DNA of 64,000 nt from a virus: positions 27,445 through 91,444 of the IMG/VR virus record IMGVR_UViG_3300027970_000012; one strand, written 5' to 3'. Below the pieces are notes generated by a model. It was not told where the DNA came from. It ran no database searches and saw only the letters and a list, made by a program, of their open reading frames with translations. The position numbers and the translations under genes are program-made. Positions 15,738 through 48,500 of the stretch are shown here, piece after piece. Position 1 is the first letter of the stretch. Every line of letters begins with the position of its first letter.

Positions 15738-17246
15738 ATGTCCATTAAATTACTACCTCTCATACAAGCACATTGGGAGAAGTCTAAATTTATATCGTTA
15801 TCAAAAAATTTAAGTCTGGTCAACTTAATTAAAGCCGAAACGAGCTTCTTAGATAAAATCTACTCTCAAATTTCATTAAGAACCCGAGCATATGTAATAC
15901 AAAACCAAATCACTTTAGCTACACTACCCAAATGTAAGTGTGAATGTGGAAAATACGCAGGAATCAATCATACAAATCCCGAATTAGGATTTCGCTTATA
16001 TTATAATGTAACTTGCTCTCGTAGAAATAAAACTATAGATAAAGAGATTCTCAAGAAGCTTGATGATTATCAATTTTTATATGATGAGAAAATAACAAAA
16101 AACAAGTCTATAGAACAAATTGCTTCCGAAAATAACGTTTCCATCACTCCAGTAGTTAAATATTTGAAAAAATATGAACTATATCAACTAAATGATGCAA
16201 GAAGAAGAAACAATAAGGCAAATATAGTTCTTGAAGATAAGAAAGAATTGGAGTTATTATATGCTACCAATACAATGGAGAACATTGCTGAAACTCTAGG
16301 AACTACGAAAGGAACTGTTTCCCGATGGTTTAAAGTTCATGCCATTTCAGCAAAGCCTACAAATTCATACGAGAGAAAAATCAAAAGAGTCTCAGGAGAG
16401 GAGATGGAACTCTACGATTACATAAAGAGTATATCTTCATATGAAGTATTTCAATCTAATCGCTCAATTCTAAATGGAAAAGAATTAGATATCTACATTC
16501 CAGATAAAAACTTAGCAATTGAATATAATGGTCTTTATAGTCATTATTATAGACCTTGGGAAGACTCCTCAGGATTAAGAAAGGATAGTAGTTATCATTT
16601 ATGGAAAACTGAGGAATGTGCAAAACAGAATATACAATTACTACAATTCTATAGCGATGAATGGAAATTTAAAAAATCAATCGTACAAAATATCATAACG
16701 TCTAAACTCGGACTCAATGATAGAATTTATGCAAGAAAATGTGAAATAGTATTAGTGGACACATATACTAAAAATGAATTTCTAAATGAATATCATATTC
16801 AGGGTGAAGATAAGAGTTCAATAAAGTTAGGTCTTACATATGAAAATACTCTAGTTGCGATTATGACTTTTGCTAAATCTAGATTTAATTCAAATTATAC
16901 TTGGGAACTAACTCGGTTTTGTGTGAAAGGAGGAACTAGTGTGATTGGTGGATTTAGTAAATTATTAAAAAGCTTTACAAATGAGCACGGAACTTCTATT
17001 ATATCTTATGCGGATAGAAGATATTCAAATGGAAATGTCTATGAAACAAATGGATTCAATTTAATTGCGACAAATAAGCCATCATATTATTATGTGGATA
17101 AGAATCATCTTCGTAGAATAAATCGTATGAGATTTCAGAGAAAATATATTGGTGCTTATGACTGTACCGAATATGAAAAAGCTAGAGAACTGGGATATGA
17201 AAAAATCTGGGATTGTGGAACCTTAAGATACGGATTTTCCCAATAA
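15738..17246 (+). CDS. Free-standing homing endonuclease, EDxHD (Vsr-like) family
   Basis: A 502-residue protein, the only convincing plus-strand gene. It has an N-terminal region with a KCKCECGKYAGI cysteine cluster and two helix-turn-helix units (SIEQIASENNVSITPVVKYL and TMENIAETLGTTKGTVSRWF). The nuclease core reads LNGKELDIYIPDKNLAIEYN, then HLWKTEECAKQNIQLLQFYSD and EW. This is the layout I know from Vsr-like EDxHD homing endonucleases of phages. A C-terminal domain (IQGEDKSSIKLGL, MTFAKSR, YADRRYSNG) is common in these proteins. It is inserted between gp23 and the gp3 candidate, so it may protect or target a neighbouring gene. Start chosen at MSIKLLPL. Confidence 0.85.
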   Translation: MSIKLLPLIQAHWEKSKFISLSKNLSLVNLIKAETSFLDKIYSQISLRTRAYVIQNQITLATLPKCKCECGKYAGINHTNPELGFRLYYNVTCSRRNKTIDKEILKKLDDYQFLYDEKITKNKSIEQIASENNVSITPVVKYLKKYELYQLNDARRRNNKANIVLEDKKELELLYATNTMENIAETLGTTKGTVSRWFKVHAISAKPTNSYERKIKRVSGEEMELYDYIKSISSYEVFQSNRSILNGKELDIYIPDKNLAIEYNGLYSHYYRPWEDSSGLRKDSSYHLWKTEECAKQNIQLLQFYSDEWKFKKSIVQNIITSKLGLNDRIYARKCEIVLVDTYTKNEFLNEYHIQGEDKSSIKLGLTYENTLVAIMTFAKSRFNSNYTWELTRFCVKGGTSVIGGFSKLLKSFTNEHGTSIISYADRRYSNGNVYETNGFNLIATNKPSYYYVDKNHLRRINRMRFQRKYIGAYDCTEYEKARELGYEKIWDCGTLRYGFSQ

Positions 17247-26873: not shown

Positions 26874-26910
26874 ATGTTTTCCTCTGAACCAAAGTCTCAT
26901 TTCCTAGTAG

Positions 26911-26917
26911 TATTTAG
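26911..26917 (-). promoter_or_regulatory. Candidate late promoter CTAAATA for gp18
   Basis: Minus-strand CTAAATA 38 bases upstream of the preferred gp18 start, in the gap after the second terminase gene. Confidence 0.5.
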
Positions 26918-26963
26918 GAAAATTGATTTTTATCAGACCAGTTGTGTTAAATTATACAAAAAT

Positions 26964-28211
26964 TTATCCCATATAAAATTCGGACGAAACATCTCCATAC
27001 TCATCTAAATTCCATACTTCCATCGGCATATTTTCTGTATTCGCCATCATCCAAACATCTCCAGTTTCTTTTTCAACTGTAATTTCATCATCATTCTCTA
27101 ATCCAGTATTAATAAATCCAAATGGAGCCATATCTTGTTCAATCTGCTCCTTCTGTTCAAGATACATTCTCTTACGAATGTCATTGTTGGTAATTTCTTT
27201 GAAGTATTCCTGAACAACTAACCAAGAGAAAATTACGATACACATACAAAGGTCATCATTCGTTCCAATTTCAGCTTGATATGAATTATTTTTGGATATG
27301 AATGTAGTTAACTCACTAATAATATCAAAGTCTTCAATGATAAGTTTATTGTCCTCAATGATGGTTTTCATATTAGAACAACCCACTCTCTTTACTTGCT
27401 TGGACATTTTGATTCCTAACTGTGAGGTCTTACCCGAAAATCCTTGTCCAACTAATTGTCCAGCTCTACCTCTCATAGAACACATTAGAAGATTTTCATA
27501 CTCAAGTTCATATTGTAAGTCTTTGGCTACTTGGTCTCCTACACTTGCGATTTCAATGAGAACATAAGCTTTGTTATATGAATTTGCTACCTTATAAATG
27601 ATATCTGGAAGAAGTAGTGGCTTAAGTTCATTATTTTTATACTTTGCAACAATCTTGTATGGAATATTTGTGATGTCGTATATGATGAATGCGTGATAAT
27701 CCTTACCCGTTCCTTCTGAAACGTCCACAGTCATAATGTAATTGTGTTCCTCTATAGGAGGTTCATACACATCAAGTCCTTCAGACCGAGTAATTGGGTC
27801 GTTGTATATTAGGTTTTGTAGTTTTGATGAGGTAATGAGCGTATCAACAGAACCTAGGAAACTACAGTTGTGTGATACTATATTGTTAGAATAATAAAGA
27901 TGGTCTTCTCCAGAGTTGACAATATCAAATAATTCTACTTCTTTCTTAATGGTTCGGTATGATTTGAGAAATGTTCCACCATTCTTGGTAAAAACTTCTG
28001 TTGTCTTATTTAAATTCTTAGCTTTGACAATACCATCTATTGTAGAGAGTGGATGGTCCAAAGAGCACTTGAGTTCATTTCCGTCTTCAAATATTAAATG
28101 AATATATTTGTTCTTCTTAATCTTATTGACGCCCAGAAAAGATTGAAATCCATTTGGAGTTGAGATTTTAATCTTTTTATGATTTAATACTATGGTTTCT
28201 GGAAGCTTCAT
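26964..28211 (-). CDS. 17: Terminase large subunit gp17, C-terminal part with split intein C-half
   Basis: A 415-residue protein. Residues 1-115 are the C-terminal half of a split intein ending SHN. Residues 116-415, beginning CSFLGSVDTLITSSKL, are the gp17 nuclease (RNase H-fold) half. Features of the latter include NYIMTVDVSEGTGKDYHAF (metal-binding Asp), VLIEIASVGDQVAKDL and a late NDDLCMCIVIFSWLV with a further acidic metal ligand. Trans-splicing to the product of 28328-31507 is needed for a complete terminase. The start codon has no strong ribosome site. The two genes are in the same orientation, separated by 116 bases. Confidence 0.92.
   Translation of the reverse strand: MKLPETIVLNHKKIKISTPNGFQSFLGVNKIKKNKYIHLIFEDGNELKCSLDHPLSTIDGIVKAKNLNKTTEVFTKNGGTFLKSYRTIKKEVELFDIVNSGEDHLYYSNNIVSHNCSFLGSVDTLITSSKLQNLIYNDPITRSEGLDVYEPPIEEHNYIMTVDVSEGTGKDYHAFIIYDITNIPYKIVAKYKNNELKPLLLPDIIYKVANSYNKAYVLIEIASVGDQVAKDLQYELEYENLLMCSMRGRAGQLVGQGFSGKTSQLGIKMSKQVKRVGCSNMKTIIEDNKLIIEDFDIISELTTFISKNNSYQAEIGTNDDLCMCIVIFSWLVVQEYFKEITNNDIRKRMYLEQKEQIEQDMAPFGFINTGLENDDEITVEKETGDVWMMANTENMPMEVWNLDEYGDVSSEFYMG
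27867..28211 (-). other. Split intein, C-terminal half (IntC, 115 aa)
   Basis: Begins MKLPETIVLNHKKIKISTPN, includes a block-B-like LKCSLDHPLS and ends with ELFDIVNSGEDHLYY... and the splice motif VSHN followed by Cys+1. The segment IKISTPNGFQSFLGVNKIKK closely resembles the IntC of the AceL-TerL split intein as I remember it. That intein is split after only about 25 residues. The large size of IntC relative to IntN marks an atypical split site. Confidence 0.88.
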
Positions 28212-28236
28212 TCAGTTAGGAACTTTATACATCTAT

Positions 28237-28356
28237 TTAATGTTTCTTGTTTATATGAGTTCTGGTCTTAAATCCATATTTTTCTGCTATTTGTTGATGA
28301 GTCATATTTAGATTATGATAATCAAATTCAATCTGTTCCTTGGTTGGATAGTTCAT
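28237..28356 (-). pseudogene. Homing endonuclease remnant between intein halves
   Basis: A 39-codon frame from ATG (28354-28356) to TAA (28237-28239), overlapping the 3' end of the first gp17 gene in another frame. It reads MNYPTKEQIEFDYHNLN then MTHQQIAEKYGFKTRTHI, the N-terminal helix-turn-helix of free-standing phage homing endonucleases. The nuclease domain is absent. Known fractured genes with split inteins often have an endonuclease gene between the halves, so this looks like its eroded stub. Confidence 0.65.
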
Positions 28357-31300
28357 TATAAAGTTCACCTATGGTGGTTTCAACTACAATACCATTAACC
28401 ATTATATTTATCAAGGTTTCAGGTAGGAACGATTCAAATTCCTGATTCCATTGCTCTAAGCTCGTATTTGCGATACTTTGCTGCTTAAATTTCTCGTCTC
28501 TACCTGGAACCTCACTCCAATGAACCTCAGTTGGAACATATTCATTCTTACCACGTATGGCGTCATTCCAAAATCTATAAAAGGTATTCATTCCTTTAGG
28601 GGTTTGGTGGCCTAAAAAGTTGTTGTATAATACCGAGTGCGCCCAAGAATCATCAGCAATATCGGGTAGAGAAACATCAAAAACTTCATTCTCACTTAAT
28701 TTAATATCTTTAATTTCTAACCAAATCATATTTTCGTTCACATTATCATCAAAGAATCTTTTAATATTTTCATTAGAGCATAACTCTTCTTTATTTTCTA
28801 ATAGAAGTTGTCTAGAATAATTTTTAAATTCCTTATGCCTTCTTCCCAATGAAGGCATTCCATTTTCAGCTAGAATTACTGCAGAATTTGGAATAATATC
28901 GGTTCTACTTCCAACTCTAGTTGAAGCTTTCAATAGATTGATTCTTTCTAATTTTCTTGGTAGAGAGAACCCAATTTGAGAGAAATATTCAAATGCATAT
29001 TTACCGACTATTTCAATATCAAAATGAGTTGAACTAACTTTAACTCTTTCTGAAGGTCCAGAAGTAGCTATATAAATGCTACCTAGTATGCCCATATTAG
29101 CTAATAATAATTGAACTTGACGAATTAACTCTCTTGAAGTTGAAGTATATTTAACTCTTCCTTTATTATCAATACCTCCATCACCATCAAACATCCCTCT
29201 TAATAGAGCTGTAATGTTAGATTTAGACCAGGACAACACTTTATCTGGCAGTGTTTTTACTCCAGCTTTATTTGTAATATCAAATCCTAGTTCTTTAAGA
29301 AAATCTACAAGTTGCTTTGAATTGATGACATAATGTACATCATCAATCTTTTTATATGGAACATTTAGAGTATTCAAACAATATGAAATATCGTCACCAC
29401 AACTGATTACAATTTGTCCACCAGTAATATTGTGAGTATTCTTGGATACACAGTCTCGCGCATATCCCTCTGCAACATAAAGCCCGACAAAATATGCAAT
29501 GTCTTCAGTTATATAATCACAACAAAATGTGTCAATACATTTTCCCTGTTCTGGATGAAATCCGATGTAATCTTCATTTCCAAAAACTTGATGATTATAT
29601 TTTATGGCTAAATAATCGCCTACTTTTAGATGTTTACTCTCTACGTAATTATACTCATTGTTGTGAAACGCCCAAAGTTTATGAGTTTGAGAGCATTCTA
29701 ATGTTTCATACCGAGTGGTTATAATATTTGTAGAAGAAGCTTGATGATTAACAATAATATCACTGGTATAGAACTTATTCTTACCCATTACAGTATACTC
29801 TGGAACTTGATAAGCACCTGTTTTGGAGATATCAATAAGCCTCTCAATTTTTCTGTATCCTTTATTTGTAAGAAGATAGGTATCTTTTGATACACAAGAA
29901 ACCATAATTACCTTGGTGTACTTACCAGAAGTAATCGTAGGATATACAGAACTAAAAAACTCGTCTGCAATTTGATTCGGAATGAACGCAAATTCGTCCA
30001 GGAAGATTACATTATATGAACCTCCTCGGACGGCAGAACCAGAAGTAGAAGATGCAATAATTTTTGAACCATTGTCCAGTTCTAGAGAAGCCTTATTCCA
30101 AATCTTAACTCCATGTTGCATCCATTTGGGTAGATTCTCATAGGCAAGCTTTAGTCTACCTAAAATATCTTTTGCAGTTTGAGCTTTGTTAGCTAGAATG
30201 GCGACATTAACATTATCATTGAATATGATATAGTGAAGTAGATATGAGATAGCTGTAGTCGTATTATGAGTAGGAATGAATGTTCTTCCACATAGAAATA
30301 AGTGAGTTTCACTATCTACTTGAATACACGCTACAGGAACACTCTCCACTTTTTCTATATTTTGTATATAATGTCTGGTATTCTGTGGCCTACTTTTTCT
30401 CTCAAAATTTATTAAATTTAATTTTCTTGGAAGATTGAAAATACACTCCTTACTAGCAAATCTGATGGTATAGTACCAACATTGATTAATGAGTCTTCTA
30501 CTTACTCTAGACTTTATTCCTAATGTAGCTAATAGTTCAACAACCTGAAGAATAAGCTCATAATTTTTTTGATAAAATTCAAATGATTGAGTTTTTGTAA
30601 TTGACCCATCAGAATCCATCAGTCCTCTCAACAATTCCAATCTCTGGTCTACTGATGCTCGTAGATATTCTTGAGGAATATGTTTATTTTTCAATAAACT
30701 ATTTTCTTCCAATTCTTTATTTAACCCACGACACTTGAACCGAATACAATTCTTATAGACTGTCTCCTGTTCAACATCAATTTTAGTTTTATAAAATTCA
30801 TAATCATCTTTATGGGCAACGATTCTCCCCTCGTGAGACGAACCATCACCTAACCAAAGACCAAGAAGATATGGGTCTATTGGTAAATCTTTGGGAGTTC
30901 CGACCATTGGTTTGGAGCATTCAATATAAAATGCGCCAGCCACACCTTTTCCTCTTTTGTTGTTGGCTTTTTCAGAGTATCTTAAATACATTTCATTTGT
31001 ATTGATAACTCTCTTTCCAGCAGTCCAATAAGAACTATTTACTTCCCACAGATGTTCTGCATCGGCAATAATTTCTTCACCATTATCAAAGTATATTTTA
31101 TAACATTGATGATTTAACATCGTTTCTGTTTTAAATGTTACAGAAACTGGATTCCCATTTGGAGCAAGTACCCTATCTCCGACCTGGATATCCCCAATTG
31201 TAGTCCATCCTTCAGGAGTTGGTATTGGAGTATCTAACGATAATGGCTTACCAACCTGGCGTGGTAATTTACAAATATTGAATCTATGTTGATGAAACTT

Positions 31301-31507
31301 CTTAATGAGTTTCTCTTGAAACTTATATAATTTAAATGGAATGAGACCTTCATCAAGGCTCACAATTTTAATATAATTTCTTGCAAAATATACTGGGTCC
31401 TTCTTACACTTAATGAACTCCTGAATATTTTCTGCAGTGAATTCAATGGATATATTTGCTCTCTTTAGAAGAGGATTACCAGAGTAAATTTCATTGGCGG
31501 CAGCCAT
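28328..31507 (-). CDS. 17: Terminase large subunit gp17, N-terminal part with two inteins and IntN
   Basis: A 1059-residue precursor of the DNA-packaging ATPase. Extein segments are residues 1-87 (ending in the Walker A start LPRQVGK), 416-537 (TTTAISYLLHYI, Walker B VIFLDEFAF) and 969-1025 (TPKGMNTFYRFW, ending QWNQEFE). Insertions are intein 1 (88-415), intein 2 (538-968) and the N-half of a split intein (1026-1059). With the 300 extein residues of the second gene, the spliced protein would be 566 residues, the normal size of cyanophage gp17. None of the packaging activity can exist before splicing, since intein 1 divides the ATP-binding loop. Confidence 0.94.
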   Translation of the reverse strand: MAAANEIYSGNPLLKRANISIEFTAENIQEFIKCKKDPVYFARNYIKIVSLDEGLIPFKLYKFQEKLIKKFHQHRFNICKLPRQVGKPLSLDTPIPTPEGWTTIGDIQVGDRVLAPNGNPVSVTFKTETMLNHQCYKIYFDNGEEIIADAEHLWEVNSSYWTAGKRVINTNEMYLRYSEKANNKRGKGVAGAFYIECSKPMVGTPKDLPIDPYLLGLWLGDGSSHEGRIVAHKDDYEFYKTKIDVEQETVYKNCIRFKCRGLNKELEENSLLKNKHIPQEYLRASVDQRLELLRGLMDSDGSITKTQSFEFYQKNYELILQVVELLATLGIKSRVSRRLINQCWYYTIRFASKECIFNLPRKLNLINFERKSRPQNTRHYIQNIEKVESVPVACIQVDSETHLFLCGRTFIPTHNTTTAISYLLHYIIFNDNVNVAILANKAQTAKDILGRLKLAYENLPKWMQHGVKIWNKASLELDNGSKIIASSTSGSAVRGGSYNVIFLDEFAFIPNQIADEFFSSVYPTITSGKYTKVIMVSCVSKDTYLLTNKGYRKIERLIDISKTGAYQVPEYTVMGKNKFYTSDIIVNHQASSTNIITTRYETLECSQTHKLWAFHNNEYNYVESKHLKVGDYLAIKYNHQVFGNEDYIGFHPEQGKCIDTFCCDYITEDIAYFVGLYVAEGYARDCVSKNTHNITGGQIVISCGDDISYCLNTLNVPYKKIDDVHYVINSKQLVDFLKELGFDITNKAGVKTLPDKVLSWSKSNITALLRGMFDGDGGIDNKGRVKYTSTSRELIRQVQLLLANMGILGSIYIATSGPSERVKVSSTHFDIEIVGKYAFEYFSQIGFSLPRKLERINLLKASTRVGSRTDIIPNSAVILAENGMPSLGRRHKEFKNYSRQLLLENKEELCSNENIKRFFDDNVNENMIWLEIKDIKLSENEVFDVSLPDIADDSWAHSVLYNNFLGHQTPKGMNTFYRFWNDAIRGKNEYVPTEVHWSEVPGRDEKFKQQSIANTSLEQWNQEFESFLPETLINIMVNGIVVETTIGELYNELSNQGTD
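28331..28432 (-). other. Split intein, N-terminal half (IntN, 34 aa)
   Basis: The last 34 residues of the first gp17 gene, SFLPETLINIMVNGIVVETT followed by IGELYNELS, have the block A layout of an intein: residue 1, then T-I, a G turn and IGELY. The first residue is Ser, not Cys, and follows the extein ending QEFE, which in relatives continues directly with C-x-FLGS. The Ser1 / Cys+1 pairing matches what I recall for GOS-TerL. Confidence 0.85.
28604..29896 (-). other. Class 1 intein 2 in gp17 (431 aa, LAGLIDADG)
   Basis: Starts CVSKDTYLLTNKGYRKIERL after extein KVIMVS and ends FLGHQ before TPKGMN (Thr+1). The terminal residue is Gln rather than the usual Asn, known in a minority of inteins. 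A block B histidine lies in SQTHKLW. Two LAGLIDADG helices, FVGLYVAEG (about 136-144) and LLRGMFDGDG (231-240), show a full homing endonuclease. It is inserted just after the ATPase strand following the Walker B region. Confidence 0.92.
30263..31246 (-). other. Class 3 intein 1 at gp17 Walker A (328 aa, LAGLIDADG)
   Basis: Inserted between LPRQVGK and TTTAIS, splitting the phosphate-binding loop. The first residue is Pro, which cannot start the standard reaction. The class 3 W-C-T signature is present instead: Trp67 in ADAEHLW (block B), Cys307 in VPVACIQVD (block F) and Thr326 in PTHN (block G). Two LAGLIDADG helices (LLGLWLGDG about 127-135 and LLRGLMDSDG 205-214) indicate an endonuclease. 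It ends THN with Thr+1. Confidence 0.92.
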
Positions 31508-31513
31508 AATACT

Positions 31514-31690
31514 TTATATTGGTTTGATACTACTCATTGTCTCTAGAGTAGATAGGTGCAACTTTATATAGGATTTGAATAAAGACTTCAATGTGTCTAC
31601 ATTTTCGCATTTATCAATCTCTCTACACAGACAGATAAATTCAAATTGCTTACTCAAATCTTTTAATTCAATTCCATCAGAATTCGGCAT
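31514..31690 (-). CDS. Small hypothetical protein before gp17 (58 aa)
   Basis: Reads MPNSDGIELKDLSKQFEFIC and ends LHLSTLETMSSIKPI, mostly helical. Its ATG shares a base with the TGA of the DUF5661-like gene (TGATG), so translation is probably coupled, and its stop is 6 bases before the gp17 start. This packing strongly suggests a real gene of the late operon. No family recognised. Confidence 0.65.
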   Translation of the reverse strand: MPNSDGIELKDLSKQFEFICLCREIDKCENVDTLKSLFKSYIKLHLSTLETMSSIKPI

Positions 31691-36251: not shown

Positions 36252-36452
36252 TTATTTAGTTCCATTAATTAATTCCGCTACAAGCTTCTTTAATTCTGAA
36301 ATCTCAGATTTCACTTGTTCTAATTCTCTCTTTTCATTGATTCGGGTTTCTTTAAATCTTAAATATTCTGAATACTGATTTTCATTGCAATTTATAATTG
36401 CTCCAGTTGCCTCATCTCGGTATAATCCAGAATGACCCTCTACTGGTATCAT
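36252..36452 (-). CDS. Small coiled-coil protein (66 aa)
   Basis: Starts MIPVEGHSGLYRDEATGAII, then NCNENQYSEYLRFKETRI and a C-terminal heptad-like helix ELEQVKSEISELKKLVAEL. I recall small proteins of this layout in cyanophage structural clusters. It overlaps the 2476-aa gene by ATGA, so it is translated with it and may be its partner or a virion component. Confidence 0.7.
   Translation of the reverse strand: MIPVEGHSGLYRDEATGAIINCNENQYSEYLRFKETRINEKRELEQVKSEISELKKLVAELINGTK
36253..36259 (-). promoter_or_regulatory. Candidate late promoter CTAAATA
   Basis: Minus-strand CTAAATA overlapping the stop codon of the 66-aa gene, 24 bases before the BppU-N-like gene. Confidence 0.5.
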
Positions 36453-39400
36453 AACGTAGCAATAGCTCTCAGGTCACGAATCAATGGAACATTAGATTGA
36501 CTAGTTCCATTCATCATAATCTTTATTTGATATCCAGTAAATTGAGGCAGAGATTTTGCAGTAAATTCGTAATTTTTATACTCAGATAGAGTATTTGAAC
36601 TCTGAATTATTCTGTCTGAGCTTCCGTCATTCTTAGACAAATCTAAAGTATTTTTATTGTTATCTAGATTTGCGTATCCAGGGAACAACTCATATACCTG
36701 CTGCTCAGGAGGCATATTATCACGAATAAGACGATACGCAACTCTAATATCGTTTGTTGAGTGCCTATAGGCATCAAAAATGACGGAGAGAGAGTCTGCA
36801 GGCTGTTCTAGTGTAACTAACTTTGATACGTATACTGCAGCGTGTGGGTCCTGATAGAGTTCATTTACTCTACTATCATTGATATAGTTCAAAACTGGAC
36901 GGTCAATTCTATTGTTCGTAGCAATTATATTAATTCGGTCCAAATCTATAACAGGAGAAACTCTACGGTCATTTGTAGATAAAGTTAACTCCATAGTAAA
37001 TGATTTTTTATTTGGAAGTAGAGACAAATAATTAGTCTCATTTATCTTGGAGCAGATTATTCTTGGAGTACTGAAGAAATTATTTGAAGATAGTGCAATT
37101 GGTTCAAATCCCATATCTACAAAAGAAGCTTCTGTACCACTAATACTTGACCCAGAGATTGTTCGTATCTTTGCTGAAATATTTGTACTTTCGGGAAGTA
37201 AGGTTTGAATATTTGGTCTAATTGAGGACATTAATATATTTTGAGTAGCCTTTGGTCCACGAACAGTATTTGATTGAATTTCATTTGAAAAATATGACCC
37301 ACCAAATTTGGTTTGATTGAAGAATAGTATATCAACTAAACTCCTATCCGCTCCATTTGATGCAGTGTCAATCTTGATATGATAGCTATCTAATGTTGTT
37401 GGATATGCAATTTTATTCACAGTACTCAAATTATGAGTTCTATTGATTCTCAACAATGAGATTCCATTAAATTCATACTTCAACACGTAATCTCCTGTGG
37501 AATGATTTTGTGAAAAATAACTCTGTAGTAGAATTGGGTCTTCTGAGTTGATGAAATTTGAAGTAAATCTTTGAATTCCACCGATGGAGGACCCAACAGT
37601 GTCTACGCTGGTATATTTTATAATTTCGCTATTTATCAACACATATCCTGGATTATCCACAGAAATAGGAAGATTTTCAAACGTAGTTAAGATTCCAACA
37701 GAGTTTATATTCAGAGTAGTCGTATTTGGAATAACGTTGGAAGTTAATTTGAGTGGAGTAGTATCTGGCTCTACTCCAGTTAAGGATATAAAATTATTGT
37801 ACGCATACATTCCGTGATTATTATGCTGAACTTTAATGTGTAATCCGTCTGCAATTTCAATTGGAGTTGCTGAGACACGAGATGAGGAAATTGCACCACC
37901 ATTAACTACAATATTTGTAGGAGTATCTACATTCAATTGACCCTGCACATTAGTTAATAATATGCTATTGAATGCTGAAATTACACCAATGTTTGTGGGT
38001 ATTGTTATCAGTAAATCTCTACCCAGATTATTTGTAGAATTTGTGTCTATAGAGAGAACATCTCCTTGAATATATCCTGACCCGCCTGATATAACAGTAA
38101 CAGTTCTTGCAATTCCTGCAACAATTCCTATATTTGCAGCAGCACCTCTACCTAGACCAGTGAATGAAGTTAAGTTTACGTTATTATACGTAGTTGTAGT
38201 ATTACCGAAACTAACTTGTGGAGTACTGACGATTAGAGTAGAGCCAATTCCAATTGCACCGACAACTGATACTAAGTCAGAATTGAAATATGAATTAGAC
38301 TGTTGTGTTACTGTAGCTCCTGGAATTAATGCATTGATATCAGAATTTGTAAAACTCTTTCCAATGGAAGCCAATATCGTTCTTGAATATGCTAATATTG
38401 GATTATTTCGGAGAGAAACTACTTGATTGTTTCCAATATTGAGGTCTGGATTGTATAATTTGATACTACCACTAGTAGCAGTAAAGTCTGCTCTATATGT
38501 TGTAAACTTCAAATCCTCATATTGGCTTGGGTCCCAGGTAGAACCATTCTGAGATTTGAAGAGTGACCCCAAGAGTGGCTGCTGTGAAATAATTACTCTA
38601 TCACTCTCTGGTAATGTAGTTGTAGAGATTTCTGTCTCACCCATTCTAGATATCCAAACAGTATAGCTAGTAGATGCAGAAAGCAGTACAATTGCATATT
38701 CTCTACTTCCGTCTAAGTATACTGGAGATGGGAAATAGAATGTAGTTGGGACACTTCCATTTTCTGAGATATTTACTTTATCTGGATTTAGAGTAACAGT
38801 TCCAAATGGAATGATGACCTGAGTTGGAATTCCCAATTCAACCGTTCTAATTTGTAATGTTACTGGAATTCCACCTAAGTCTTTTCCTTGGAAATAAATA
38901 TCACACTTGGTTAAGAATATTCCATTTGTCTCATCAACGACAAAAGATTGAGCCAAGGGGTCAGTATATCTAACTGTTTGTGTACTTGAAGTATCAGTTA
39001 CGAGTCTCCGAGCAGTTACCTCTACTGTTTCAACATCAGCATTTCTAATCATTAAATTATTGGCTTCTACACTTTCCAGGACTCCAGTAGCAGTAAACTC
39101 ACCAATTCCTGAACTTTGACTTACTCCACCCACAACAGAGTTTATCTCACTTGTTGTGATAGTAAATGTTCTTGTACCTGTTTGGAAAACTGGTGTAGAT
39201 GGAATAGTTGGGTCAGGAATAAACAAGGACCCAATAAATGTACCATTTGAATCACTAATTAGTCTTAAATCGGATACTGTAGCAACAGCTCCACTGACTG
39301 TGCCCACCAATCTCATACCAATGGATATACAACCATAAAATTCAGATGCTCCAGTCAATTCCAGACTTGCAGTATCAATATTTAATGTAGTACTGGTTGG

Positions 39401-42400
39401 AGAGTAAATATTGGGCAATGAATCATTTGGATTGTAGATATTTTTTGAATATTCCTCTACCAATAGATTTGGTTCAATATTTTCACTACTTGAGTCAACT
39501 GGACCATATTTATGATTTTGCTTAACAAGTCTAAATCGTATTTGTTTTGACCCAAGAATTCCAGTAACAGTTTCTCCGACTATAAAGGTTCCAGCATTCA
39601 TATTGACTTCTATTAATTTCGGAATCATATACTCCGTCATATTCACATCATCAAAAAATGCGTAGAATCTAGTTGTAGGCTTCAATCGCGTTGCAATAAT
39701 TTCTATATTCCTAGACCTCATTGTAGTTACATTGGCCGTAGAAACAGTCTTATCTCCAAGACTGACCGTATCATATTGCTCAGTAACCTGAAACTGAGTT
39801 CCAGATTTCACTTGAGCTTGTGTAGTTGTAGTCGTGGTTGTAGTGACGGTTTCTAGATTCGTACCTGATGGTCTATCGGCTGCAAAATTACTACTTTCTG
39901 TAACATTAACGCTTGTTCCTGCCCAAGTTGTTTCCCAAGACCCCCATTGTACGGGAGATAGTCCAGTATTAGTGTCTACGCCTAAGCTAACCAAGGTAGA
40001 AGTATAGTTTCCATCAACAGTTCCAACTATTTGGTCATCCAATCTTCTGGTTTCAACCCAAGAATCGCTTGATGGATTGAATTCAATAGTACCAACCCAA
40101 TTTATGACTGCAAATGGATTAACATTTTCTATTCTTGTTGCAAATGGATTTTTTATGTACTCAACTTCGTCATAATTTAAGCAAACAATATCTCCAACTT
40201 TCTTAACTGAATTGGAACCCAAATCTACTGCATATCTTAAATCTACTGTAGATGTACTCTCTCCAATTCCAACTCCAGGAATTAAATCTAATGCTGTAGT
40301 ATAGTGAGAAGGACGCAAAATTCCATTTGCAGTATCTACACTTACTTTATAGTCTGGATTTTGAGTATCTCCAGAGTCCAATGACCTAAAGTTATCCACA
40401 AAGAATCCAGATTTGAATCTATCTAGCCCAGTATCAGTATCCCGAATGACCAAGTTTTTGGTGTCTTGCTCTAACAATGAAAGTAGAGTGTAATATTCTA
40501 TGTTCTTAACTCTAGCATCCAGTTTAGAGATATCCTGCATAGTATATCTCTTATGTTGATTATAGCTCACTGAGATTGTGTTGATATCTCTCAAATATGC
40601 TGGAATTGTAAATGTTGCAATTTCTAGTGCATTATCAAAATTCTGTGGATTAGTTGGAGGTAAAGTTGGAATTCCTGTACTCAATACAAAATTACCAGTC
40701 TTATATAAGAATAGCTTATCTATTCTTGGTAGATAATAGTCATAGCTAAGGCTTATTGTAGAATTCTTGGAGAAAATATATGGAGAGGAACTTGAAACTT
40801 CTGTAAATATTCTAGATTTAGCTTCAAATGGAGAAAATGTACCACTATATGCGGAAACAATAGGCCTAAAATCTAGAATATCCGACGCATACAGATTTCC
40901 AGTTTTTGGTAAATCTTTAGCATATCTAGCAAAATCATATGATGAAATGGATACAATATCTCCAGAAGAATTAGAAGGTGTAGTATAATTATTGTATATA
41001 ATTCTAATCTTTCTACTTGGAATATTTGAATTATCATTTCTAATAATTCTAGAGAAATCTAAATACTGCTCTCTATATCCAGAATCTAGAGCATACAAAT
41101 TGGTAATGTTGTTATCTCCAAGATTAGATTCACTAATCACCGCAGAAATCCCACTCTCTTCAAATTGTACCAGTTCTCCTACAATGAATGCATTTTCATT
41201 TGCTCCCACATATTCAATTTTAGTGGAGTTCAGATAACCTACAAAATATCCAACGGAATTACTATTGCTACCAATTATCTTCTCACCTTTGATTACATTT
41301 AATATAGATGAAGATGGAGTAGATAGAACTAAAGATGGAATTTCGGGGTCTGCGGTAGAAGAACTCTGATATATTCCCAATACTTTAATTGCTTCTGGAA
41401 CATTGAGTGAAATTTCCCTATCCTGAACTCTTAGTCCATATGCTCCACTATAGGTGAGCCCATCATTTAATGTAGTTGCACCCAATCCAGAGGATACTAA
41501 ATTAGAGTTTGTGATGATACTAGAAGAACATCTATTGAAAGTTTTTCTTCTGGATGATGCTCTGTTGAGTTTACAAGTTGCAATTAATGTAACCAAACCA
41601 GTTTGAGTTAATTTTGAAATTGTTAGAGATTTTCTATCTGAAGAGAAATTTATATTGTCAAACTCTACTAATGGTACAATATTTCCACCGTTTACATAAC
41701 TTAAAGTATAATTCTCTTCATCAAAAGATTCAAATGCTAAGTTAGCCTCACTTAGAACATAAGTGATTGAACTAGAGGAAACGTTTGTACCACTGAAGGT
41801 TTTCTTAATATTAAATGAAGTTCTACTCAGGTCTACTCCAACTGAATTATTATACTTCAAATTCAAATATAGATTTGATTTAGGATTTATAACGATTGGC
41901 TCTACTTTTTTTATGTCCGTGGTAGTTATTAATGATGTAGGCAGAGAACCACTACTCACACCAGATATAGACTGAGTTGGAATAATGCTGAATATATTTT
42001 GGCTTTGACTTATATTACTAACTCTATTGTATGTTGGTAATACTTCTCCCTGCTTAGTATATGAAATAACGTCTCCAACGTTAATAATATTGAAGAATAA
42101 TGTGGATGCGCTCACAGTACTTATTCCCGAAGATGCTGCAGATACTGTAAAGTTTTGTGAAATATTTGAGATATAGCTGGATTTAGATAATACTGGGTCC
42201 GCAGTAAAAGTTCCTATGGATACATTAGATGAATTTGCTACGACTTGATGAACATCTCCAAGTTGATAGTCCTTAATAGTAGCAATTATCTTATTACTAC
42301 TAACTCCATCTACTTTTATTGGTTCATTTAAATTAAATGAACCAGATACATCGTATAGAAATAATTGATTACTATTACTCACAGATTGGTATAAAAATCC

Positions 42401-43879
42401 TCTTGCTCCACTACTATATCCTTCAATTAACTTTGGAGTAGTTAAGGATGTGAAATTTGTATTCAGTTCAATTCTAGTGAAAAGTTGAGTATCATATAGT
42501 GAAATTTCATACTGAGTTTGTGAGCCAGAATGACGAACTCCAGCACTTTCGTAGTCATATACCTTAGAAATTCCAATTAGCTGACCACTAGAAACTCCAA
42601 CATTTGCTGTTCTAGAATCATATAATAGTATCTGAGATGTAGTAAGAAATCCAACAGGAATTGTTCCATAGACATTATTTACTACCAATATATTTCCACT
42701 ATTGATTTGTAGATTTTCATCTACGGATTTGTCGGTAGTTCTTGGCTTCTGAAAATCTAATAGAGTTGATTGTGCGTCTATTTCATATCCTCTGACGTAT
42801 GCCTTTCCAGACGAAATAGAAATGCATCCTAAATCATCACTTGCAATATTACCTTCTCTGGTTTGTTCTCCAGCATAAAATATACCATTATTTCCAATTC
42901 TGTCATTTACACATTCTTTTAATGAAATATTGAATGGTCTAACATAGTAGTCTCCACTCTCATCATAAGTTCTTCTTGCGAGTTCATCCCGAATTAAATT
43001 GTAATTCGTATCATCTACGAATTTCTCAATATTACCATTTCTTACTCTAATTAATTCTATAAAATTTTCATCATTGAAGTTATCAATATCCTTTTTGATT
43101 AAACTTGTAGTTATGATAAATCTGTCTGCACCAGGAGCAACATAATTTGAAAATCCCTGAGCATTGTCGTATAAATCTGGATATTCATCTGATGCAGTAA
43201 TGATTTCCTCACTGATAACAAATCCAATTCTATATGATGGAGTATTGGAATATTGGTCCAGAATTACAGTTTCTTTTTTTGTTTCTATGAAATATCCTCT
43301 AATGAAAAATATTCCTGATTCTATTTTTGCAGCAGAGCCGATAGCAGTGGAATTATTGGATAGAGTAGTTGCAAATGTACTATTTGCACGAATTGAGGAA
43401 TTTGAAAATAAAATATTGTCTATAGTAATTAAAGCTTCTCCATCTGCAAATTTAGATACGATGAAATTTGTATCACTAGATGAAATATACTTGATATAAA
43501 GTGTATAGTTTGAATTCTCTGACTCAGAATTTGTAATATAGTTTTCAACTATTGCAGTTACTCCACTGGTCTGCCCTTTTACAGTTTTTCCAATTAAATT
43601 TTGAACATATGCAGAAACTGGTATTCCTAAATGAGTACTATTAATTTGTACACAAGTATAATTTGGGTCATAAGCAATTTGCCCAGGAATGACCACAGAC
43701 CCATCTTTGAAGAAATGATTTCCAAATTTTTCAATTTGATTCTGAAGTATTGTTTGTAGAGTGGTTAATTCTCTTGCTTGAACTGGAAGTCCAGGATTAA
43801 ATAATACCTTTTGATAATTTCTGCTCGCATCAAAATCATCAAAATATGGAGATACATTTAAATTTGTATTTTGTGGCAT
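36449..43879 (-). CDS. DUF4815 virion protein (2476 aa), baseplate or fibre
   Basis: A very large structural protein between gp8 and the neck genes, the place of T4 genes 9-12. The N-terminus SPYFDDFDASRNYQKVLFNP, GLPVQARELTTLQTILQNQI and EKFGNHFFKDGSVVIPG is the DUF4815 signature of phage tail proteins. The rest is beta-rich and Ser/Thr/Asn-rich, including VISGGSGYIQGDVLSI (a G-GY repeat) and a block with LINSEIIKYTSV. It may combine connector and fibre roles; no receptor-binding tip can be recognised. It starts 6 bases after gp8. Confidence 0.85.
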   Translation of the reverse strand: MPQNTNLNVSPYFDDFDASRNYQKVLFNPGLPVQARELTTLQTILQNQIEKFGNHFFKDGSVVIPGQIAYDPNYTCVQINSTHLGIPVSAYVQNLIGKTVKGQTSGVTAIVENYITNSESENSNYTLYIKYISSSDTNFIVSKFADGEALITIDNILFSNSSIRANSTFATTLSNNSTAIGSAAKIESGIFFIRGYFIETKKETVILDQYSNTPSYRIGFVISEEIITASDEYPDLYDNAQGFSNYVAPGADRFIITTSLIKKDIDNFNDENFIELIRVRNGNIEKFVDDTNYNLIRDELARRTYDESGDYYVRPFNISLKECVNDRIGNNGIFYAGEQTREGNIASDDLGCISISSGKAYVRGYEIDAQSTLLDFQKPRTTDKSVDENLQINSGNILVVNNVYGTIPVGFLTTSQILLYDSRTANVGVSSGQLIGISKVYDYESAGVRHSGSQTQYEISLYDTQLFTRIELNTNFTSLTTPKLIEGYSSGARGFLYQSVSNSNQLFLYDVSGSFNLNEPIKVDGVSSNKIIATIKDYQLGDVHQVVANSSNVSIGTFTADPVLSKSSYISNISQNFTVSAASSGISTVSASTLFFNIINVGDVISYTKQGEVLPTYNRVSNISQSQNIFSIIPTQSISGVSSGSLPTSLITTTDIKKVEPIVINPKSNLYLNLKYNNSVGVDLSRTSFNIKKTFSGTNVSSSSITYVLSEANLAFESFDEENYTLSYVNGGNIVPLVEFDNINFSSDRKSLTISKLTQTGLVTLIATCKLNRASSRRKTFNRCSSSIITNSNLVSSGLGATTLNDGLTYSGAYGLRVQDREISLNVPEAIKVLGIYQSSSTADPEIPSLVLSTPSSSILNVIKGEKIIGSNSNSVGYFVGYLNSTKIEYVGANENAFIVGELVQFEESGISAVISESNLGDNNITNLYALDSGYREQYLDFSRIIRNDNSNIPSRKIRIIYNNYTTPSNSSGDIVSISSYDFARYAKDLPKTGNLYASDILDFRPIVSAYSGTFSPFEAKSRIFTEVSSSSPYIFSKNSTISLSYDYYLPRIDKLFLYKTGNFVLSTGIPTLPPTNPQNFDNALEIATFTIPAYLRDINTISVSYNQHKRYTMQDISKLDARVKNIEYYTLLSLLEQDTKNLVIRDTDTGLDRFKSGFFVDNFRSLDSGDTQNPDYKVSVDTANGILRPSHYTTALDLIPGVGIGESTSTVDLRYAVDLGSNSVKKVGDIVCLNYDEVEYIKNPFATRIENVNPFAVINWVGTIEFNPSSDSWVETRRLDDQIVGTVDGNYTSTLVSLGVDTNTGLSPVQWGSWETTWAGTSVNVTESSNFAADRPSGTNLETVTTTTTTTTQAQVKSGTQFQVTEQYDTVSLGDKTVSTANVTTMRSRNIEIIATRLKPTTRFYAFFDDVNMTEYMIPKLIEVNMNAGTFIVGETVTGILGSKQIRFRLVKQNHKYGPVDSSSENIEPNLLVEEYSKNIYNPNDSLPNIYSPTSTTLNIDTASLELTGASEFYGCISIGMRLVGTVSGAVATVSDLRLISDSNGTFIGSLFIPDPTIPSTPVFQTGTRTFTITTSEINSVVGGVSQSSGIGEFTATGVLESVEANNLMIRNADVETVEVTARRLVTDTSSTQTVRYTDPLAQSFVVDETNGIFLTKCDIYFQGKDLGGIPVTLQIRTVELGIPTQVIIPFGTVTLNPDKVNISENGSVPTTFYFPSPVYLDGSREYAIVLLSASTSYTVWISRMGETEISTTTLPESDRVIISQQPLLGSLFKSQNGSTWDPSQYEDLKFTTYRADFTATSGSIKLYNPDLNIGNNQVVSLRNNPILAYSRTILASIGKSFTNSDINALIPGATVTQQSNSYFNSDLVSVVGAIGIGSTLIVSTPQVSFGNTTTTYNNVNLTSFTGLGRGAAANIGIVAGIARTVTVISGGSGYIQGDVLSIDTNSTNNLGRDLLITIPTNIGVISAFNSILLTNVQGQLNVDTPTNIVVNGGAISSSRVSATPIEIADGLHIKVQHNNHGMYAYNNFISLTGVEPDTTPLKLTSNVIPNTTTLNINSVGILTTFENLPISVDNPGYVLINSEIIKYTSVDTVGSSIGGIQRFTSNFINSEDPILLQSYFSQNHSTGDYVLKYEFNGISLLRINRTHNLSTVNKIAYPTTLDSYHIKIDTASNGADRSLVDILFFNQTKFGGSYFSNEIQSNTVRGPKATQNILMSSIRPNIQTLLPESTNISAKIRTISGSSISGTEASFVDMGFEPIALSSNNFFSTPRIICSKINETNYLSLLPNKKSFTMELTLSTNDRRVSPVIDLDRINIIATNNRIDRPVLNYINDSRVNELYQDPHAAVYVSKLVTLEQPADSLSVIFDAYRHSTNDIRVAYRLIRDNMPPEQQVYELFPGYANLDNNKNTLDLSKNDGSSDRIIQSSNTLSEYKNYEFTAKSLPQFTGYQIKIMMNGTSQSNVPLIRDLRAIATL

Positions 43880-45503: not shown

Positions 45504-48500
45504 TTATAATAGCCCTCTAGTTCTATACATCATTGGACCACTAGATAGCCCAATCAATCCATTGTCTTTATTCACCACAAATGCTTTAGGATTCTTTCTG
45601 GACCTATTTTGGTAATCGTATACAATACCAAAACTATAGTTACCGTAAAATCCGATGGTGTTTACACCAGAGTTTATGGTTATATTACCAGAAGAATTTG
45701 GTACAAAACTACATCTAACTGTAGAAATCCCTAGAGTTGGTGTGGTAACATTCTCAGCTTTATAGATACCATCAATAAATGTATTTGCCGTTCCAATTTT
45801 GGAATTTGGATAGTTAGACATACCACCGAGACTTGTGGTAATTCCTGTTAGAGCGTGACTACAGATTACATTACTATTGTTGATAATGAAATAATCTCCA
45901 CGTATCAAAGGAGAATATTGCATATTTGGAATGGTATTGATATAATTACGTGATGACAACTTGAACTCAATCGCAGGCGAGTTGGTTCCAAATCCAACAT
46001 TACCAGTTGGATATACGGTTACATCTACAATATTTCCATAATCGCCACGAGCTTTAATGGAGTATATTTGTTCGGAATCTACATACTCGGTTTCTACTAT
46101 ATTTGGAGCAGTTGAATTATATCCGAATCCACCATTAGTTACAGTAATGGAAGACAACCTTCCATCAGTTGCTGTAGCATTTGCAGTTGCTTTATTGATT
46201 TGAGGAGTAGAGTATGAAATAAATCCACTTGAACCTACAGAGATATATCCAGAATTATCAGATGTATCTATTGGAAGAATATCTAAAATTGAGTAGGAAT
46301 CATCAACTACTCTAGAAACCCAACTTCTTAAGTCCAAAGAAAAATATAATTTTCCAGAATTATCTAAAATGGTATACAAGTTATTATAATATCTTATCTT
46401 CAAGATATTGCTTACTATATTTGTAGGAATTAACGTCCAAGAAGATGCTCCAATATCTGAAGTTAAGACTGTGCCATCATCTCCCACAGCAACAAAATTC
46501 ATTCCAGTCCAAATCACACAGTTTAAATTCTTATTGGTAGGTACATTAACTACCGAATCCCATATCAATCCGATATCTGAATATAGTATGGTTCCTAGAC
46601 TACCAACAGATATAATATAATTTGAATTTGAACAAGTTGAAACCATATTCTCTATTCCAATTCCAACTTCATATAATCTATCTGTGGAAATTCCAGAACC
46701 GATAAATATTTTTCCAGAATTTCCTGACCCAACTACTACATCTCTTGATGCATCATATATTATGGAATTGATATTACCCTGATATGTACTTATGGACCCT
46801 GTTGGAGGAGAACCAATAGTTTGAATAAGTTTAATCAAATAAATTCGATTCCAACTAGTATTTGAGGTAACACTAGTACATCCATATGCTAATGCAGAAT
46901 TACCAACCACCACGCACTGATTATTCTTAACTGCTATAGCGTTGAAGTCTACATCAGGATTAATTTTTCTTCCAGAATTCCACACAGTAGAATTGTAGCT
47001 AAATGCGTATTCTCCAGAATTTCCAACAGAAACCCAAACTTTATCAAAAGCGACAGAATTAAATTGATTTGACGTTACAATTCCTACATTACTAGACCAA
47101 TTTAAAATTGGGTCAAATTTTATTAAGTTTGGAGCGGATACACTTATTTTTGGTGAAATTACATTTTTATATCCACTTCCAGGATTCACAATATCAAATG
47201 ATACAATAGTTCCTGCAGTAGAAACTATTGATGTAACCATAGGTTGAATAATTTCTCGGTTATCTAGAATAATCACATCTCGTAAATCTTCGTTTAATTT
47301 TCTAGTTTCATCAATATCCTCAAATAGTGGTAGTGCGCTATCCACATAAAGAACAGTATCGTTACGAGATACATCTTTAATAATATTAGCCACAGGAATA
47401 GTTCTAGAAGTTAAACTTGGCCTAGATTTTGAATAGATAGAACCATTTAGTATTCTATCTGTAGTCTGCTTAGTCCAATCCAGTGGTCTAATTTTATCTG
47501 AAGTGGTTAGAATTCCGATGCTATCATATGGGAATGTATCAATAATATTAGTTCCCACCACATCTTTAACAACTCTCTCAAATTGTGAAACATCAAATGG
47601 GTCATAAATGTTTTCAGTGATTTTAACACTATCTCCAGTTTTTATTGTTTTTGGTGGGTCTACTTGCTCTACATCTAAATCTGAGCCTCTGAAATATAGA
47701 ATGTTGCACTTTGAGCCAGATTTTGGAGCCTCAGTGAAGGATATTCTACCTGCAGAATAGGTGTATGAGATATCAGGAACTTGTAGTATATCATTTATGA
47801 AAACGAACAAATTATTTTGTATCTTAATATCGTTGGTATTTGTTCTAATGCTTACTACATTAGTTACTCCCAATATTGTCTTACTGATAATGAATCTCTT
47901 TTTGATTCCATTGAAACTAGATGAGATATTATCAAATTGAACAAATTGACCAGGATACCATCCAACAAAATTATCTGTGATAGTCTCTAGTACTGTTACT
48001 CGGAATTGACTAAAGTTCACGGTATTTGGAATGGTTGTAATACCAGAGATAACCAAATTGTCTCCTACACTATAGCCAACTCCAGTGGAATTCAATTCAA
48101 ATGAAATGATACTAGACCCATTTCCCACTATGATAGAAGCTTTAGCTCCTTGGCCTTGTCCAGAACTTCCACTAGCATAGGATAGACTCATATTATAATA
48201 ATTTTGAGGTATATCAATTCTTACCTGAGGTAAGATTGAATTTGTGTAACCAGACCCTGGATTTATAATACTTAATGATGTTATTGTGCCCGATGTTCCA
48301 ATGGTAGCTACAATTGACGCTCCTGTTCCCACAGTAGATGCAATACTTATGCTTGGAGCACTCCGATAACCAGCTCCAAAGCCTGTTAAGTATACATTGG
48401 AGAGTGTACCTAAGCCAGATACCGCAACGGTTGCAGAGGCTCCTACGAGAGGCATATAACCAAACCCTGTTGTGTATCCGACTCTACTTATTTTACCCGC

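What the first reader, a model, noticed from the sequence alone, without database searches (positions are those of the whole stretch)
27867..28432. Atypically split trans-splicing intein with Ser1 and Cys+1
Seen: a 34-aa IntN beginning Ser ends the first gene and a 115-aa IntC ending HN precedes Cys in the second. Known: AceL-TerL and GOS-TerL are terminase inteins split near residue 25, and Ser1/Cys+1 was reported for GOS-TerL. This gives a complete genomic context (both exteins, neighbours, endonuclease stub) for an intein type known mostly from metagenome fragments.
Basis: partly seen in the sequence, partly recalled or inferred. Interest (0 to 1): 0.82.

Follow-up and report, generated by a model that had tools for sequence, protein, structure and literature searches.

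The report
Split intein in phage terminase gene
A phage's DNA-packaging enzyme is encoded in two separate genes whose proteins almost certainly stitch themselves together through a known, rare type of split intein; the DNA-cutting gene that once sat between them has been lost, yet the gene stayed split.

Summary
On the minus strand of a T4-like phage, terL is broken into two ORFs. The first ends in a 34-aa IntN starting with Ser (28432-28331). The second opens with a 115-aa IntC ending His-Asn before Cys (28211-27867). It is a new member of a known kind, the N-terminally split Ser1/Cys+1 TerL intein (type: GOS-TerL, reported as 37+115 aa). IntC matches the consensus atypical TerL intein (PDB 6dsl, E 3e-19), and a Ser1 relative folds as an intein.

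The "endonuclease stub" is the two ends of a Vsr/DUF559-like (EDxHD-type) homing endonuclease left by a ~955-bp deletion; relatives keep the whole gene. Of 46 Ser1 rows (45 loci plus the window), 22 lack an intact endonuclease and none is re-fused. IntC is under strong purifying selection and has moved between terminases. The window's terL carries two more inteins.

Outside the finding, one contig 99.98% identical to the window carries a different, split intein at the Walker A codon. A 22-nt tract of synonymous changes beside it looks like a co-conversion footprint. Twelve related loci encode TerL in three pieces.

Trans-splicing itself is inferred, not shown.

The parts
28328..31507 (-). terL-N ORF (1059 aa): TerL ATPase part, two complete inteins, then IntN
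   Evidence: Terminase_6N and PHROG terminase matches; extein and intein borders
30263..31246 (-). intein 1 (328 aa) in the Walker A motif (QVGK|P...IPTHN|TTT), class 3-like with WCT residues, LAGLIDADG-type endonuclease domain
   Evidence: WCT positions as described in PMC5050341
28604..29896 (-). intein 2 (431 aa) between MVS and TPKG; Cys1, ends in Gln (LGHQ|T), LAGLIDADG domain
28331..28432 (-). IntN, 34 aa, begins Ser1 after the extein residues EFE; ends at the stop of terL-N
28246..28350 (-). remnant of the N-terminal (helix-turn-helix) end of a homing endonuclease, inside a 39-aa ORF that starts at ATG 28356 and stops at 28237
   Evidence: local score 115 against the L004 endonuclease, best of 500 shuffles 51; E 7.5e-14
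28208..28249 (-). [quoted passage not shown] its stop overlaps the IntC start codon (ATGA)
   Evidence: 12 of 12 residues identical to the L018 endonuclease, E 5.6e-5
27867..28211 (-). IntC, 115 aa, ends His-Asn; next residue is Cys+1 of the C-extein
   Evidence: CatC match; block B His53, block F Asp96, His114, Asn115 and Cys116 invariant in 11 aligned sequences
26964..28211 (-). terL-C ORF (415 aa): IntC followed by the TerL nuclease domain
   Evidence: Terminase_6C E 4.2e-15

Best explanation
The phage makes its large terminase as two polypeptides. The ATPase half carries a short IntN (34 aa, split after the first intein helix) and the nuclease half carries the rest of the intein (IntC, 115 aa). 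The halves bind and fold into one HINT domain. Ser1 attacks the upstream peptide bond to give an ester; Cys+1 takes over the ATPase half; Asn115 cyclises with help from His114, and the two exteins are joined as ...NQEFE-CSFLGS.... The two cis inteins in the first half must also splice out before TerL is complete. The element began as a mobile cassette, IntN - EDxHD-type homing endonuclease - IntC, that invades intein-less terL genes at the EFE|C codons. In this phage the endonuclease has been deleted, so the cassette can no longer home by itself, but it must go on splicing because terL is essential. Shown here: anatomy, homology, selection, horizontal movement of the cassette, and loss of the endonuclease. 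Inferred: the splicing chemistry, the trans-association, translational coupling, and the homing activity of the intact relatives.
For: Exact borders, and the joined 566-aa TerL aligns without gaps across all three junctions in 66 alignments to unbroken TerLs; the nearest, L156, is 82.9% identical with all three sites empty. IntC matches CatC at E 3.3e-19. Catalytic residues are invariant in 11 aligned Ser1-type sequences. Relatives with the same split: 97 rows tabulated. IntC dN/dS is 0.04-0.12 in the pairs where it could be computed, including pairs in which one or both members lack the endonuclease. The AlphaFold model of a Ser1 relative (L023, halves joined through its TGA) has pLDDT 85 and pTM 0.82, with a helix just before the split; Foldseek ranks split inteins and the Cat intein first. 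Intact endonuclease in relatives: DUF559 E 2.7e-7 and HTH_28; remnants in the window. Mobility: of 595 pairs, IntC is at least 15 points more alike than the C-extein in 104 and the reverse in 1; L196/L197 98% versus 62%.
Against: No experiment. IntN alone found nothing in the PDB at E up to 10. The Pfam Intein_splicing match to the second half is below its curated cut-off (18.8 against 35.8 bits). The structure model is of a relative, not of the window's own pair, and its five models range from pLDDT 85 to 73. IntC has no clear Shine-Dalgarno sequence by eye before its ATG. IntN is less conserved than IntC (dN/dS 0.29 and 0.45 against two relatives).
Confidence: 0.92

Rival explanations
1. An ordinary contiguous intein broken by a frameshift, a sequencing or an assembly error.
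For: The two reading frames differ and the gap is short (116 nt between the stop and the IntC start).
Against: Two other contigs carry the same break. All but two of the 97 tabulated rows are split. The gap holds remnants of an endonuclease that is whole in relatives. TGA lies directly before the IntC ATG in the same frame, so no frame change alone reaches IntC.
Confidence: 0.02
2. The halves are joined at RNA level by an intron, or by programmed frameshifting or read-through.
For: Phage terminase genes can hold introns (ICP1, PMC10448857, passages; CB7, PMC7344957, passages).
Against: No Rfam intron match in 26900-31600. The 116-nt gap is short for a group I intron (recalled). All three frames contain stops in the gap. 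IntN and IntC are conserved as protein, which an intron would not need.
Confidence: 0.02
3. The intein is decayed: the halves no longer splice and TerL works as two associated chains.
For: The endonuclease is decayed, IntN is the least conserved part, and T4-type terminase has separable ATPase and nuclease domains (recalled).
Against: IntC is under purifying selection of the same order as the extein, and every catalytic residue is kept. Unspliced IntC and IntN would sit in the ATPase-nuclease hinge of an essential motor (inference).
Confidence: 0.05

Closest known systems
GOS-TerL split intein (Bachmann and Mootz; read through the review PMC11766414, passages)
   Same: TerL host gene, N-terminal split, Ser1 with Cys+1, IntC of 115 aa, short IntN (37 aa there, 34 here)
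   Different: Sequence not in hand, so identity not measured. Five loci found here (L176-L180) have exactly 37+115 aa and may be its closest kin. GOS-TerL has been shown to splice; this one has not.
AceL-TerL and the Cat consensus intein (PDB 6dsl)
   Same: Same fold and split position; IntC matches CatC at E 3.3e-19
   Different: Cys1 instead of Ser1; IntN of 25 or 30 aa and IntC of 104 aa. The review says Ser1/Cys+1 makes AceL-TerL inactive.
'Fractured genes' of Dassa et al. 2009 (not held, recalled from its title and citations)
   Same: Gene in two ORFs, split intein at the break, free-standing endonuclease between
   Different: Here the endonuclease is reduced to two end pieces
N-terminally split TerL inteins of isolated Vibrio phages (1.244.A, K469, VP-1)
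   Same: Same TerL insertion site, short N part, separate IntC ORF
   Different: Cys1; the IntN is fused in frame to a GIY-YIG nuclease

Membership tests
Atypically (N-terminally) split TerL intein, GOS-TerL/AceL-TerL kind | Short IntN (15-37 aa), split after the first helix | tested here: met
   IntN 34 aa; helix 21-34 just before the split in the L023 model; range from PMC13014065 passages
Atypically (N-terminally) split TerL intein, GOS-TerL/AceL-TerL kind | Sequence homology of IntC to TerL inteins | tested here: met
   CatC E 3.3e-19. Direct alignment to AceL or GOS sequences was not possible.
Atypically (N-terminally) split TerL intein, GOS-TerL/AceL-TerL kind | Ser1 with Cys+1 (GOS-TerL) and class 1 residues: block B His, block F Asp, penultimate His, terminal Asn | tested here: met
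   Ser1/Cys+1 reported for GOS-TerL in PMC11766414
Atypically (N-terminally) split TerL intein, GOS-TerL/AceL-TerL kind | Trans-splicing activity | not testable with these tools
   Needs expression of the two halves
Fractured gene with split intein and endonuclease | Host gene in two ORFs, each with its intein half | tested here: met
Fractured gene with split intein and endonuclease | Intact endonuclease ORF between the halves | tested here: not met
   Only both ends remain in the window; EDxHD-like ORF in 23 of the other 45 Ser1 rows
Class 3 intein (intein 1 of the same gene) | WCT triplet and no nucleophile at position 1 | tested here: met
   Pro1, W after H-L in block B, C in ACIQVDS, T at +1 (borders; definition from PMC5050341); read by eye, no profile run

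The most novel reading that the evidence does not exclude
The terL gene of this phage lineage is an active battleground of inteins. At the Walker A codon, near-identical phages carry either a cis class 3-like intein (window, L003) or a split intein with an endonuclease (L002), and the swap left a 22-nt co-conversion footprint. In 12 related loci TerL must be assembled from three polypeptides by two trans-splicing reactions, so two homologous split inteins in one gene have to avoid cross-splicing. At the EFE|C site the endonuclease is lost again and again, yet the split is never repaired, so splitting behaves as a one-way step. A Ser1 pair beside a Cys1 pair may help keep the two apart.
Probability: 0.5. 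Interest if true: 0.68.

Novelty: new member of a known kind. Interest (0 to 1): 0.5.

Why it matters
Ser1/Cys+1 split inteins are thermodynamically odd and very few have been studied. This one comes with 45 related Ser1 loci in terminase genes (46 rows with the window: 22 without an intact endonuclease, 23 with an EDxHD-like one, one with a GIY-YIG one). That turns the life cycle of a split intein - invasion, endonuclease loss, persistence of the split - into something that can be read off sequences and tested. It also supplies naturally coexisting split inteins within one gene, which are candidates for orthogonal protein-ligation tools.

Tried and rejected
IntN alone against the PDB: no match at E up to 10. 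The genome-contig scan with the Ser1 IntC alignment found no relative (16 pattern matches, none confirmed). Pfam found no family in the 43-aa stub ORF; PHROGs gave one weak match to a family named HNH endonuclease (E 0.0014). I take this to be the shared helix-turn-helix end, because the whole relatives match DUF559, not an HNH domain. The PDB search with the L004 endonuclease gave only weak matches, among them 3r3p 'Mobile intron protein' at E 0.36, so the label EDxHD rests on DUF559 and on motifs recalled.

I first thought that N-ORFs of about 295 aa meant a second upstream split; that was wrong, they are whole N-exteins. Real second splits were found later in other loci. I feared that L002 was a chimeric contig; the identical sequence on both sides of the replaced stretch (107 nt upstream, 4,484 nt downstream with 1 mismatch) makes that less likely but does not exclude it. 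The 22-nt flank does not group by allele among 12 loci, so donor and recipient cannot be told. Apparent N-terminal remnants in L011/L013 and C-terminal ones in L023 overlap IntN or IntC codons and were not counted as remnants. IntC tree: 112 columns, many open forks; direction of change is not inferred by it. In alignment A3 the window IntN was misplaced, so it was left out of A4. One script ended in an error after printing the needed part. Dassa et al. 2009 is not held.
Full report
WHAT IS THERE. The window is bases 27445-91444 of a 91,444-base virus record. It is T4-like: portal, head scaffold, prohead protease, major head, tail sheath, sheath stabiliser, baseplate and SbcC/SbcD-like genes were recognised. 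The large terminase is on the minus strand in two ORFs. terL-N (31507-28328, 1059 aa) has the ATPase domain (Terminase_6N E 6.4e-11) and terL-C (28211-26964, 415 aa) the nuclease domain (Terminase_6C E 4.2e-15). terL-N ends with a 34-aa piece after ...NQEFE that starts with Ser (28432-28331). terL-C starts with a 115-aa piece ending His-Asn (28211-27867), followed by Cys-Ser-Phe-Leu-Gly-Ser. The reported coordinates are exact.

TERMINASE EXTEINS. terL-N also holds two complete inteins. One of 328 aa lies in the Walker A motif (31246-30263, QVGK|P...HN|TTT). One of 431 aa lies at MVS|TPKG (29896-28604, Cys1, C-terminal Gln). With all three removed in silico the exteins make 566 aa. This aligns without gaps at the junctions shown in 66 tblastn alignments that span all three, to unbroken TerLs among the fetched loci; the nearest, L156, is 82.9% identical and has all three sites empty (the first 6 of the 66 were printed and read).

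IT IS A SPLIT INTEIN. IntC matches the engineered consensus TerL intein CatC over residues 8-114 at E 3.3e-19, then gp41-1 at E 8.8e-6 and VidaL at E 1.1. In 11 aligned Ser1-type sequences His53, Asp96, His114, Asn115 and Cys116 are invariant. IntN alone gave no PDB match. To fold both halves together I used a Ser1 relative, L023, whose halves lie in one frame 12 nt apart; its TGA was read as W. AlphaFold gave pLDDT 85.1 and pTM 0.82, with helix 21-34 just before the split. Foldseek found 69 PDB matches at E <= 0.001; rank 1 is the NrdJ-1 split intein fusion and rank 2 the Cat intein, 40% identical. The model is not of the window's own pair.

SURVEY OF RELATIVES. Scans of viral contigs with IntC and with another TerL IntC plus the phage records gave 139 entries with an IntC..HN|C.F junction, the window counted. 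After dropping re-fetches of one contig, 6 loci at other insertion sites, and loci without the N half, 97 rows remain, the window included. 46 have Ser1 and 51 Cys1; all 97 have Cys+1, which the filter required. Ser1 rows: 21 were called EDxHD by motif, and L184 and L189 on inspection (L184; its motif has N for D), so 23; L208 has a GIY-YIG ORF; 22 have no intact endonuclease, among them the window and L169 with a truncated one. Cys1 rows: 35 called GIY-YIG by motif plus L033, L034, L035, L047, L066 and L067, which I assign after reading L033, L066 and L067 and by likeness of gap length and intein for L034, L035 and L047, so 41; 1 HNH (L074); 2 contiguous (L072, L073); 2 without endonuclease (L036, L191); 3 with an internally deleted one (L172-L174); 2 Vibrio phages with IntN fused to a GIY-YIG nuclease. 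Ser1 IntN lengths run from 27 to 47 aa. Rows include near-identical contigs.

THE STUB. Whole relatives carry a ~360-390-aa ORF with helix-turn-helix domains and a C-terminal DUF559 (Vsr-like) nuclease domain (L004: HTH_28 E 4.7e-9, DUF559 E 2.7e-7). In the window 35 residues of its N-terminal end remain (score 115 against L004; best of 500 shuffles 51), and its last residues QETLNRCIKFLTE precede the IntC start in another frame (score 58 against 38) (against L184 E 7.5e-14 and against L018 12/12 identical, E 5.6e-5). The gap is 116 nt against 1,071 in L004, so about 955 bp are missing, not a multiple of three. The endonuclease stop overlaps the IntC start codon (ATGA) in L004 and in the window. 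Similar internal deletions are seen in L025, L197, L169 and L172-L174.

THE SPLIT OUTLIVES THE ENDONUCLEASE. On a tree of 68 rows, presence or absence of an endonuclease needs at least 14 changes, Ser1/Cys1 only 3; for the label 'lost', strongly supported branches force 5. The alignment is short and the tree does not tell gain from loss; direction comes from the remnants. None of 46 Ser1 rows is contiguous, although the search by IntC would have found contiguous ones. In L014 and L191 the two ORFs overlap by 4 nt and are still separate. IntC dN/dS is 0.037 for window-L004 and 0.05-0.12 in the other pairs where it could be computed; it could not for window-L166, where synonymous sites are saturated. 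IntN is 0.29 and 0.45 against L004 and L166. This fits the published homing cycle of empty, endonuclease-bearing and endonuclease-less alleles (PMC3229294, passages); the window holds the third kind.

MOBILITY. In 35 distinct rows of the window's IntC type (595 pairs) IntC is at least 15 points more alike than the first 100 residues of the C-extein in 104 pairs, the reverse in 1; L196 and L197 are 98% and 62%. Pairs are not independent, but inteins usually evolve no slower than conserved exteins (general knowledge), so horizontal movement of the cassette is the simplest reading.

WALKER A SITE: INTEIN REPLACEMENT. L003 equals the window over 8,540 nt. L002 differs from it by 1 of 4,484 nt downstream. 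Yet at the Walker A codon L002 has, in place of the window's contiguous class 3-like intein, a split intein: Cys1 IntN of 39 aa, a 346-aa ORF with KIIEFDGTYWH, and an IntC of 115 aa before Thr. The 5' flank differs at 8 sites, all within 22 nt of the junction and all synonymous, and is identical for the other 107 nt held. That is what co-conversion during homing would leave; a chimeric contig is not fully excluded. Close relatives show empty, contiguous and split alleles at this codon. In 12 of the 97 rows both the Walker A and the EFE|C inteins are split with both N parts found (L002, L053, L055, L172-L174, L176, L186, L188, L200, L201, L209), so TerL is encoded in three pieces.

KNOWN OR NEW. 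Ser1/Cys+1 with a 37-aa IntN and 115-aa IntC is reported for GOS-TerL, with Cat-TerL designed from the GOS-TerL and AceL-TerL sequences (PMC11766414, passages); IntN of 15-37 aa and the split after the first helix in PMC13014065 (passages). L176-L180 here have 37+115 aa, but GOS-TerL's sequence was not in hand. Isolated Vibrio phages 1.244.A, K469 and VP-1 carry Cys1 versions at the same site; of the 6 phage records fetched, Kuja has this site empty and two (NCTC12673, PspYZU05) have their intein at another TerL site. I did not find these TerL endonuclease losses, the Walker A swap or three-piece TerLs in my searches, which cover open-licence PMC papers only; the key 2009 paper is not held. 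A Campylobacter phage terminase was reported with an intein plus an endonuclease in the same gene (PMC3322345, passages).

VERDICT. Real, correctly read, and a new member of a known kind. Its own interest is moderate; the comparative picture around it raises it.

Noticed in passing
window 31246-30263 versus L002 130-1571: Two near-identical phages carry unrelated inteins at the same Walker A codon (contiguous class 3-like versus split with endonuclease), with 8 synonymous changes packed into the 22 nt beside it.
   Followed up: yes
L002, L053, L055, L172-L174, L176, L186, L188, L200, L201, L209: terL carries two split inteins (Walker A and EFE|C), so TerL is encoded in three ORFs.
   Followed up: partly
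window 29896-28604: A second contiguous intein ends in Gln instead of Asn (LGHQ|T) and has a LAGLIDADG domain; a similar one is in L007.
   Followed up: no
window 15738-17246 (+): A 502-aa free-standing homing endonuclease ORF (phrog_3339, E 6e-99) on the plus strand, one of only two plus-strand ORFs in the 47 kept at 90 aa or more, beside the major head protein gene.
   Followed up: no
window 45504-58217 (-): A 12.7-kb ORF (4237 aa) with a YHYH domain (E 1e-19) between gp8-like and baseplate wedge genes; a 2476-aa ORF lies at 36449-43879.
   Followed up: no
window 7318-8022 (-): An R2K-type ATP-grasp protein gene lies next to a gp45-like sliding clamp gene.
   Followed up: no
L184: The endonuclease between the intein halves has Asn for Asp in its IEFDGxYWH motif (IIEYNGEYWH) and may be inactive though full length.
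   Followed up: no
L011, L012, L013, L018: The residue before Ser1 is Cys instead of Glu (EFC|S), so a second Cys sits at the upstream splice junction.
   Followed up: no
L081, L083 (Vibrio phages 1.244.A and K469): IntN is fused in frame to a GIY-YIG nuclease of about 330 aa, and the IntC ORF overlaps its end.
   Followed up: partly
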